DNA from: Mycobacterium spongiae
GTDB lineage: Bacteria > Actinomycetota > Actinomycetes > Mycobacteriales > Mycobacteriaceae
Length of the DNA: 64,000 nucleotides
Assembly (NCBI RefSeq): GCF_018278905.1
Contig: NZ_CP046600.1
Coordinates: forward strand, 496,001-560,000
Direction: 5' to 3'
Shown: piece after piece, positions 43,093-44,769 of the stretch
How the letters are laid out: each line of letters starts with the position of its first letter
Numbering within the stretch: position 1 is the stretch's first letter
Notes under the pieces: generated by a model
What the model saw: the letters and a program-made list of their open reading frames with translations, nothing else
Told to the model about the DNA's origin: nothing
The model's database searches: none
Program-made: the position numbers and the translations under genes

Positions 43093-44769
43093 ATGACAGC
43101 TCCGGTGTGGATGGCTTCCCCGCCCGAGGTTCATTCGGCAATGCTGAGCAGTGGCCCGGGACCTGGGGCGTTGCTTGCGGCCGCGGCCGCATGGTCGTCG
43201 CTGAGTGCTGAATACACCGACGTGGCTGACGAGCTCACCGCGGTGCTTGGCGCAGTGCAGGGCGGCGCATGGCAGGGGCCTAGTGCCGAGCAGTATGTAG
43301 CTGCCCACGCGCCGTATCTGGCGTGGTTGACTCGGGCCAGCGCGACCAGCGCGACCGCGGCGGCCCAGCATGAAACGGTCGCCGCCGCCTACATCACGGC
43401 CCTGGCGGCCATGCCGACCCTGGCTGAGCTCGCCGCCAACCACGTCGTCCACGGAGTGTTGTTGGCGACGAACTTCTTCGGGATCAACACCATCCCGATC
43501 GCGCTCAACGAGGCCGATTACGTCCGCATGTGGATTCAGGCAGCCGCGACGATGGGTGGCTACCAAGCCGTCTCCGACACGGCACTCGTTGCGACGCCAC
43601 AGTCCGGCGCGGCGCCGCCGATTCTGAAGTCCGAGGTTGCAGACGAGGACGACGACCACGGCGAACACGACGACGATCACGGGGACCACGACGACGACCA
43701 TGATCATGACCATGACCATGACCATGACCATGACCACGGACATGACCACGACCATGACCATGGCGACCCCACCCTGATCGACTACTTCGTTGCTGAGGTT
43801 TTGCGCGTCATCAGTGGTGGCCGGGTGATTTGGGACCCTCTCGAAGGCACCCTCAACGGCGTCCACGTCCACGACATTTCCGATGCAACTCAACCGATTT
43901 GGTGGCTTGCGCGTGGCCTCGAACTGGGTCAGCAGTTCCAAACCTTTGTCCAACAATTGTTCACCAATCCGACCGGCGCCATGGAGTTCATCGTTGAACT
44001 TGCCCTGTTCGACTGGCCCACCCACGTGGCCCAACTCGGTCAGGCGCTCGCTCAGTCGCCGCAGTTGCTGGCAGTCGCGATGAGTGGCGCCGTCTCGAAC
44101 CTGGGGGTGGTGACCGGCTTTGCTGGGCTATCCGGGCTGGCTGGCATCCAGCCGGTGCTTCCGGCGCTAGCACCCGTTGCGGCCGTGCCCCCGGTATTGC
44201 CGGCGGTCGGCATGGCTCCCAGCGTCGTGGCTGCGGGTGCGGCACCTGCCGCTCCCGCGGCTCCCGCCTCTGCACCCGCGGTGAGCACCGTCGCTACCGC
44301 GGCCGCGCCCCCGCCACCGGGTATTGGGGGTGGAGGTTTCGGCTTCCCCTACCTCATCGCTCCTCCCGGCATTGGATTCGGTTCGGGAATGAGCGCCAGC
44401 GCGAGCGCACAACGGAAGGCGCCCGAACTGGACAGCGCCGCGGTGGCAGCGGCGGCCGCCGCACGCGAACAAGCTCGCGCCAGGCGGCGCCGACGCGCGA
44501 AGAGGCACGGGCACGGCGACGAGTTCCTGAGTATGGATATCGAGGTCGACCCGGATTGGGGCACCCCGGACGGCGAAGACTCGGCCGCGGAGGCCTCGGA
44601 CCACGGTGCCAGAGCGCTGGGTTTCACCGGAACCGCGCGCAAGGGGGCGATCCGCGAGGTCGCCGGGTTGACCACGCTGGAGGGCGATGGCTTCGGTGGC
44701 GGACCAACGATGCCGATGACGCCGGGCACGTGGGATCCCGATGCCGCGGGTGACCCCGGTAAGGGCTAG
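43093..44769 (+). CDS. PPE protein of the PPE3/PPE4 type with His/Asp-rich insert
   Basis: 558 residues. Residues 1-175 are the PPE domain (WMASPPEVHSAMLSSGPGPG, WQG at 60-62, NFFGINTIPIALNEADYVRMW). Residues 183-225 are an acidic His-rich segment (15 histidines in about 41 residues, mostly Asp-His pairs) encoded by GACCAT hexamers. A hydrophobic middle, a Pro/Ala-rich part, a basic cluster (RARRRRRAKRHGHG) and the PPW-subfamily end (GFTGT and PMTPGTW) follow. It occupies the Rv0280/PPE3 place at the head of ESX-3 and has a Zur box. Metal binding is inferred. My recollection of H37Rv PPE3 has no such insert. The ribosome site is weak. Confidence 0.88.
   Translation: MTAPVWMASPPEVHSAMLSSGPGPGALLAAAAAWSSLSAEYTDVADELTAVLGAVQGGAWQGPSAEQYVAAHAPYLAWLTRASATSATAAAQHETVAAAYITALAAMPTLAELAANHVVHGVLLATNFFGINTIPIALNEADYVRMWIQAAATMGGYQAVSDTALVATPQSGAAPPILKSEVADEDDDHGEHDDDHGDHDDDHDHDHDHDHDHDHGHDHDHDHGDPTLIDYFVAEVLRVISGGRVIWDPLEGTLNGVHVHDISDATQPIWWLARGLELGQQFQTFVQQLFTNPTGAMEFIVELALFDWPTHVAQLGQALAQSPQLLAVAMSGAVSNLGVVTGFAGLSGLAGIQPVLPALAPVAAVPPVLPAVGMAPSVVAAGAAPAAPAAPASAPAVSTVATAAAPPPPGIGGGGFGFPYLIAPPGIGFGSGMSASASAQRKAPELDSAAVAAAAAAREQARARRRRRAKRHGHGDEFLSMDIEVDPDWGTPDGEDSAAEASDHGARALGFTGTARKGAIREVAGLTTLEGDGFGGGPTMPMTPGTWDPDAAGDPGKG
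43694..43766 (+). repeat. GACCAT hexamer tandem repeat coding for Asp-His
   Basis: About a dozen GACCAT/GACCAC units, the central ones identical, inside the PPE gene. Slippage would add or remove Asp-His pairs without shifting the frame. Confidence 0.9.

What the first reader, a model, noticed from the sequence alone, without database searches (positions are those of the whole stretch)
43639..43768. Zur-controlled ESX-3 PPE protein carries a 41-residue His/Asp metal-binding-like insert
Fifteen histidines alternate mostly with Asp between the PPE domain and the hydrophobic middle of the first PPE of the ESX-3 locus. The gene has a Zur box, so it should be made under zinc starvation. His/Asp-rich tracts occur in zinc and nickel transporters and chaperones. 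The combination suggests an exported zinc-capture protein. The PPE4 in the same locus lacks the tract.
Basis: partly seen in the sequence, partly recalled or inferred. Interest (0 to 1): 0.78.

Follow-up and report, generated by a model that had tools for sequence, protein, structure and literature searches.

The report
Zinc-starvation PPE with histidine tract
A secreted-type mycobacterial protein that should be made mainly when zinc runs short carries a flexible histidine/aspartate segment that looks built to hold zinc, and relatives suggest that this pairing is a recurring pattern rather than an accident.

Summary
PPE3-like gene 43093-44769 carries a 43-residue tract (15 His, 21 Asp; 43639-43767) between the PPE domain and a predicted middle domain. 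A Zur-type box lies at 43050-43067, a second before EccA3; similar boxes in this genome precede znuA, cobW and L36 genes. PPE4 lacks the tract.

The tract is not random in relatives. It sits at the same place in 13 of 22 named ESX-3-linked loci; M. tuberculosis PPE3 has a short form. In other species a different, stand-alone Zur-boxed PPE carries it. With a tract-free query, 10 of 13 tract PPEs have a Zur box against 12 of 97 others. A PGRS-like, apparently exported protein with a (DH)n tail has a Zur box in 3 of 3 orthologues; none of 27 homologous hits has one.

Most likely it is an exported zinc-binding segment used in zinc starvation: a new variant of a known kind. Metal binding, export and uptake are untested; the clades are few, so the statistics are not independent.

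The parts
43050..43067 (+). Zur-type operator upstream of the PPE3-like gene (TAATGAAAATCATGTTCA)
   Evidence: Exact match, 2 in window, 0 in shuffles. Similar boxes in this genome (2 mismatches to TGAAAATCATTTTCA) precede ZnuA, CobW and ribosomal L36 genes. Zur binding to the homologous rv0280 promoter by EMSA is reported in PMC7863910 (passages).
43093..44769 (+). PPE3-like PPE-PPW protein, 558 aa
   Evidence: Pfam PPE residues 6-168 and PPE-PPW 500-547.
43108..43596 (+). PPE domain (residues 6-168)
   Evidence: Pfam PF00823; PDB 6uuj PPE4 by sequence and fold.
43639..43767 (+). His/Asp tract, residues 183-225 (15 H, 21 D)
   Evidence: AlphaFold model: residues 181-194 and 196-219 below pLDDT 50, no secondary structure from 168 to 227.
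43684..43762 (+). GACCAT hexanucleotide array coding most of the tract
   Evidence: Tandem Repeats Finder.
43774..44082 (+). Predicted middle domain, residues 228-330
   Evidence: 10-residue pLDDT means 81-95 from 231 to 320, 72 for 321-330; helices 228-240, 268-291, 293-321, 324-340.
44590..44733 (+). PPE-PPW C-terminal region
   Evidence: Pfam PF18878.
44841..45761 (+). TIGR00027-type SAM-dependent methyltransferase, 71 bp downstream, probably co-transcribed (inference)
   Evidence: NCBIfam.
45838..45855 (+). Second Zur-type operator, before EccA3
53843..55414 (+). PPE4, the tract-free PPE of the same locus
   Evidence: Linker read; Pfam PPE and PPE-PPW (given from 53696).

Best explanation
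The gene makes a type VII-exported PPE protein under zinc starvation. Its disordered His/Asp linker, placed just past the folded PPE domain, binds several Zn2+ ions outside the cell membrane (in the cell wall or on the surface) and holds zinc near the uptake machinery, much as His-rich segments do in ZnuA- or ZrgA-type proteins. Shown: the tract, its place, the Zur-type box, its association with Zur boxes across relatives, low-confidence unstructured linker in the model. Inferred: metal binding, export, hand-over to a transporter.
For: Tract and box. The box type behaves as Zur: of five box-adjacent proteins of this genome given to Pfam, three are ZnuA, CobW and L36. Tract-free query, 40 genomes: 10 of 13 tract PPEs boxed against 12 of 97 without tract, odds ratio 23.6, Fisher p 2.8e-6, control segments 0 of 110. 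Those 13 lie in 13 different genomes, chance 0.015, though a genome outside that sample has two in tandem. Three main tract clades, two of them away from ESX-3 genes in the stretches read. In M. europaeum, M. scrofulaceum and strain IS-836 the ESX-3 PPE3 lacks the tract while a separate boxed PPE has it. A PGRS-like exported-looking protein repeats (DH)n plus box in 3 of 3 orthologues, no box in 27 homologous hits. Of 30 fetched loci with coded (DH)4 in the genus, 14 are nitrile hydratase, CobW/HypB/UreG or cation-efflux proteins; a box stands before PPE 4 of 4 and PGRS-like 2 of 2, and none was found for the other 24. Published: ESX-3 depletion impairs M. tuberculosis at low zinc, mechanism unknown (PMC3796483, passages).
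Against: The Fisher test ignores descent: on the tract-free-query tree the tract needs only 4 changes, independent pairs are too few to test, and one origin of the tract PPEs with losses is not rejected (AU p 0.28, 12 rows, L301 left out). Many boxed PPEs have no tract (12 of 22). Tract PPEs without a box of at most 3 mismatches: three of 13 (two have 4-mismatch boxes), six of 42. ppe3 mutants of M. tuberculosis are reported defective on lactate and other nutrients (PMC13102306) and less fit at high mycobactin or with carboxymycobactin (PMC7058343); neither is a zinc phenotype. I found no measurement of metal binding.
Confidence: 0.6

Rival explanations
1. The protein is a nutrient channel of the mycomembrane and the tract is a zinc-sensing gate or tuner: it reports zinc to the channel instead of delivering zinc to the cell.
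For: ppe3 mutants of M. tuberculosis grow poorly on lactate, glycerol, glucose and other sources (PMC13102306). The tract is an unstructured linker between two predicted folded parts.
Against: A gate does not explain why a PGRS-like exported-looking protein carries the same kind of tract at its very end behind a Zur box, nor the Zur link as such.
Confidence: 0.15
2. The tract is a neutral product of hexanucleotide slippage in a tolerant linker, with no metal function.
For: The window tract is a GACCAT array with more CAT codons (9 of 15 His) than the rest of the gene (2 of 11); length varies widely among orthologues, and one M. gordonae copy has grown a different unit, HTDEDG (L211).
Against: Of 42 tracts 33 use both His codons, and His density persists where the units differ. 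Slippage does not predict the Zur association.
Confidence: 0.12
3. The tract is a zinc or copper sink on the surface (buffer or protection against metal toxicity, or competition with host chelators), not an uptake aid.
For: His/Asp composition would bind several metals; weak composition-driven hits to SlyD (E 0.01) and to a Ni/Co efflux model far below its cut-off (23.3 against 195 bits).
Against: Zur control means expression when zinc is scarce, the opposite of detoxification.
Confidence: 0.1

Closest known systems
M. tuberculosis PPE3 (Rv0280)
   Same: 65% identity over 98% (P0004); same linker position with AADDDHDHDHDHGG; Zur binds the rv0280 promoter in a BCG study (PMC7863910).
   Different: 4 His in its linker against 15; no paper seen mentions the tract.
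PPE4 (same locus; PDB 6uuj)
   Same: PPE and PPE-PPW domains; fold match.
   Different: No His tract.
MAP3737, the Rv0280-like PPE of the M. avium paratuberculosis zinc island
   Same: 63.9% to Rv0280 and listed among genes induced by zinc starvation (PMC4298942, passages).
   Different: Its linker was not examined here.
ZrgA / ZnuA / SlyD / HypB His-rich metal-binding segments
   Same: His/Asp or His/Glu runs (recalled); the ZrgA model weakly hits the tract of three L151-type PPEs.
   Different: Those hits are below the curated cut-off and composition-driven; no shared domain was found.
PPE1 (Rv0096) in copper starvation
   Same: A PPE needed when a metal is scarce (PMC9600254, passages).
   Different: Copper, chalkophore cluster; ppe1 was not needed in zinc limitation there.

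Membership tests
PPE-PPW protein (ESX-3 type PPE) | PPE domain above Pfam cut-off | tested here: met
   213.9 bits, cut-off 26
PPE-PPW protein (ESX-3 type PPE) | PPE-PPW C-terminal region | tested here: met
   62.2 bits, cut-off 27
PPE-PPW protein (ESX-3 type PPE) | Secretion by ESX-3 (or another ESX) | not testable with these tools
   Needs a secretion assay; one paper proposes ESX-5 for PPE3 (PMC13102306)
Orthologue of Rv0280 PPE3 | Methyltransferase and EccA3 downstream | tested here: met
   44841-45761 TIGR00027; frame 46023-47915 (EccA3 named from recall of the locus)
Zur regulon member | Zur operator at the promoter | tested here: met
   (consensus recalled, then checked by its genomic neighbours)
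Zur regulon member | Zur binding and derepression in zinc starvation | not tested
   Only for homologues in papers
ZrgA/ZnuA zinc-uptake proteins | Family profile above curated cut-off | tested here: not met
   No ZrgA or ZnuA hit for P0001 at E 0.001; ZrgA 20-21.1 bits against 27.4 for relatives
His-rich metal-binding segment (functional class) | Measured metal binding | not testable with these tools
   Needs calorimetry

The most novel reading that the evidence does not exclude
Slow-growing mycobacteria place Zur-controlled His/Asp zinc-holding proteins outside the cell membrane. In different lineages the tract is carried by non-orthologous PPEs, usually one per genome among those examined, and in one clade by a PGRS-like protein as well; delivering such proteins may be a missing reason why ESX-3 matters for zinc.
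Probability: 0.35. Interest if true: 0.85.

Novelty: new variant of a known kind. Interest (0 to 1): 0.62.

Why it matters
ESX-3 is needed by M. tuberculosis at low zinc, but none of the papers I could search names a zinc ligand among its PPE cargo; PMC3796483 (2013, passages) states that zinc uptake systems had not been identified in mycobacteria. A Zur-controlled PPE with a ready-made metal-binding-like segment, and a repeat of the design in a PGRS-like protein, makes that question directly testable and would link PPE proteins to zinc as PPE1 is linked to copper.

Tried and rejected
Metal gene clusters beside the stand-alone tract PPEs: none seen. In L231 the neighbours given to Pfam are FAA hydrolase, glycosyl hydrolase, P450, FAD and MaoC-type enzymes, a PE-PPE domain protein, TetR and one without a family; for L082, L078 and L091 I read only the ORF list with first residues. 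Phylogeny-corrected association: not decidable, too few independent pairs. Convergent origin of the three PPE clades: not shown, one clade not rejected. Not all PPEs of these genomes were fetched. Fold search for the middle domain: the 9 matches at E 0.001 or better are PPE-domain chains. Literature: search listings and term look-ups in ten held papers (PMC12209268 gave no passage) showed no mention of a His tract in PPE3; open-access papers only, supplements not read, and the Zur regulon paper PMC1797298 is not held.

Weak points of the counts. Box = at most 3 mismatches to TGAAAATCATTTTCA (consensus from recall) within 250 bp; start codons were set mechanically and can be about 12 nt late. 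One search used hits of the tract-bearing query and is biased toward tracts. One search uses a tract-free query, but I examined 122 loci giving 111 distinct PPEs, against 159 matches; 10 loci had no recognised PPE start, 1 PPE was dropped for a short linker or upstream stretch, and 32 of the loci had been fetched earlier through the tract-bearing query. In one search little upstream DNA was in hand for L238, L243, L252, L253 and L260. In one search the upstream stretch of the 27 hits is counted from the match start, and only 11 of 27 show their C-terminus; for the rest the absence of a (DH)4 tail rests on the pattern listing, except L374 in G068, whose pattern hits were not listed.

Full report
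What is there. The ORF at 43093-44769 encodes a 558-aa PPE protein with a PPE domain (6-168) and a PPE-PPW end (500-547). Residues 183-225 are ADEDDDHGEHDDDHGDHDDDHDHDHDHDHDHDHGHDHDHDHGD, 15 His and 21 Asp in 43; 10,000 shuffles of the same protein never exceeded 11 His in 41 residues. The coding DNA is largely a GACCAT array. Zur-type boxes stand at 43050-43067 and, before EccA3, at 45838-45855. Downstream are a TIGR00027 methyltransferase and the ESX-3 genes (names from recall). PPE4 of the locus has no tract. The genome is an unnamed single contig of 5.58 Mb; the best outside protein match is M. decipiens at 70%, M. tuberculosis PPE3 at 65%.

Is the box a Zur box? In this genome matches to TGAAAATCATTTTCA with up to 3 mismatches number 59 over both strands (near-palindromes count twice), against 11 for the reversed control pattern. 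Of five box-adjacent proteins given to Pfam, three are ZnuA, CobW and ribosomal L36, one is an AAA/Mg-chelatase-like protein and one DUF169; other boxes, the perfect one at L129 included, had no clear gene beside them. Zur binding to the homologous rv0280 promoter is reported in PMC7863910 (passages).

Where the tract occurs. Linkers of P0001 and 120 homologues (one had no anchor) show tracts in M. decipiens (15 His), in M. gordonae and M. asiaticum entries, and a short one in M. tuberculosis PPE3 (P0004), the same in a BCG entry (P0059) and four unnamed near-copies. The homologue list is the best 120 of 3840. Of 73 named loci, 22 have the methyltransferase downstream, 19 of them with EccA3 in the stretch; 13 of the 22 have at least 4 His in 30 residues, 3 have short HDH/HEH forms with 2-3 His, L087 has 2 scattered His, 5 have fewer. 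Of the other 51, 15 have at least 4 His, 12 of these with a box of at most 3 mismatches. In M. europaeum (L075, L100), M. scrofulaceum (L092, L098) and strain IS-836 (L081, L103) the ESX-3 PPE3 is tract-free while a separate boxed PPE carries AHDHEEDDDHHDHEHG-like tracts. A third group, L151-type PPEs with up to 12 His in 30 residues, showed no ESX-3 gene in the 16.5-18 kb around it in six genomes (L231, L232, L234-L237); in L233 the PPE was not picked out by the ORF list.

Association with Zur control. Set from the tract-bearing query: 36 of 42 tract PPEs boxed, 33 of 82 others, control segments 0 of 124. Set from the tract-free PPE4 N-domain query in 40 genomes: 10 of 13 against 12 of 97, odds ratio 23.6, p 2.8e-6, controls 0 of 110. 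The p-value does not allow for descent. The tract needs at least 10 changes on the first tree (7 on well-supported branches) and 4 on the second (2); a single tract clade is not rejected, p 0.28, with L301 left out; independent-pair tests lack power. In the second set the 13 tract PPEs fall in 13 of 29 genomes, none with two (chance 0.015). A recheck with anchored linkers in 25 genomes found one tract PPE in 23, two in tandem in G119, and none by that anchor in G061; both G119 genes have boxes of 2 and 3 mismatches or better in front. So 'usually one' is fair and 'always one' is not.

A repeat in another protein family. Among 148 genomes 63 encode (DH)4 somewhere. The 30 loci fetched are by Pfam: nitrile hydratase alpha 3 and beta-N-type 5, CobW/HypB/UreG GTPase 5, cation efflux 1, trigger factor 4, AAA 2, DUF1490 1, PPE 4, PGRS-like 2 (below cut-off), no family 3. 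A box of at most 3 mismatches stands before the 4 PPEs and, in longer loci, the 2 PGRS-like proteins; none was found for the other 24, five of which had little upstream DNA in hand. The PGRS-like protein has a signal-peptide-like N-terminus (read by eye) and ends in (DH)n. Its three orthologues (G077, G129, G068) all have a 1-mismatch box; 27 further hits have no box of fewer than 5 mismatches in 700 bp, and none of the 11 whose C-terminus was in hand has the tail. The three are close relatives, so this is one event, and all three genomes also have an L151-type tract PPE.

Structure. AlphaFold (58-row alignment) gives a helical PPE domain, an unstructured tract (pLDDT below 50) and a confident middle domain from 228 to about 330; the rest is mostly low confidence (mean 63.4, pTM 0.37). 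Fold matches are PE-PPE structures, best 6uuj. A disordered linker fits a flexible metal-binding segment but does not show one.

Mechanism and rivals. I favour an exported zinc-holding segment for zinc starvation (0.6). A zinc-tuned nutrient channel is the main rival, because ppe3 mutants of M. tuberculosis fail on lactate and other sources (PMC13102306, passages). Neutral repeat growth and a metal sink are less likely. Known context, from passages: ESX-3 depletion impairs growth at low zinc and zinc uptake systems were then unidentified (PMC3796483); M. smegmatis ESX-3 is said there to respond to IdeR and not Zur. PPE3 is reported as a target of selection in M. tuberculosis (PMC13284343) and has pN/pS 1.12 in another survey (PMC12542625), which neither supports nor excludes a zinc role.

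Novelty. No paper seen names the tract (searches listed under Tried and rejected). His-rich metal segments, Zur regulation and PPE proteins are each known; the combination in type VII cargo, its movement between paralogues and its repeat in a PGRS-like protein look new. New variant of a known kind.

Noticed in passing
L009:10843-12525 (own genome C1:3484936-3486510), L002: Closest paralogue of the window PPE has a Zur-type box (1 mismatch) but its linker reads TEEDCDECAPAPF: two Cys instead of the His tract, possibly another metal-binding solution.
   Followed up: partly
55787-56077: EsxH keeps H14, H76 and E77 but has Gln at 70; from recall, M. tuberculosis EsxH binds zinc through H14, H70, H76 and E77.
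   Followed up: no
43864-43872: Second His element HVH in the middle domain (TLNGVHVHD), seen as VHMHD or IHLHD in some tract-bearing relatives and as IPFED in M. tuberculosis.
   Followed up: no
L358:4864-6687, L361, L362: PGRS-like, apparently exported protein ending in (DH)n with a 1-mismatch Zur-type box; three orthologues, one clade.
   Followed up: yes
L020, L211 (G119): Two tract PPEs in tandem; the second has a different repeat unit, HTDEDG.
   Followed up: partly
L058, L066, L067: M. lepromatosis, M. uberis and M. leprae PPEs keep reduced His/Gly-containing linkers with no Zur-type box within 300 bp of the set start and no ESX-3 neighbour in the locus.
   Followed up: no
L243, L252, L253, L260: Trigger factor of several mycobacteria ends in (DH)n tails, recalling (from memory) the His-rich tail of SlyD.
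   Followed up: no
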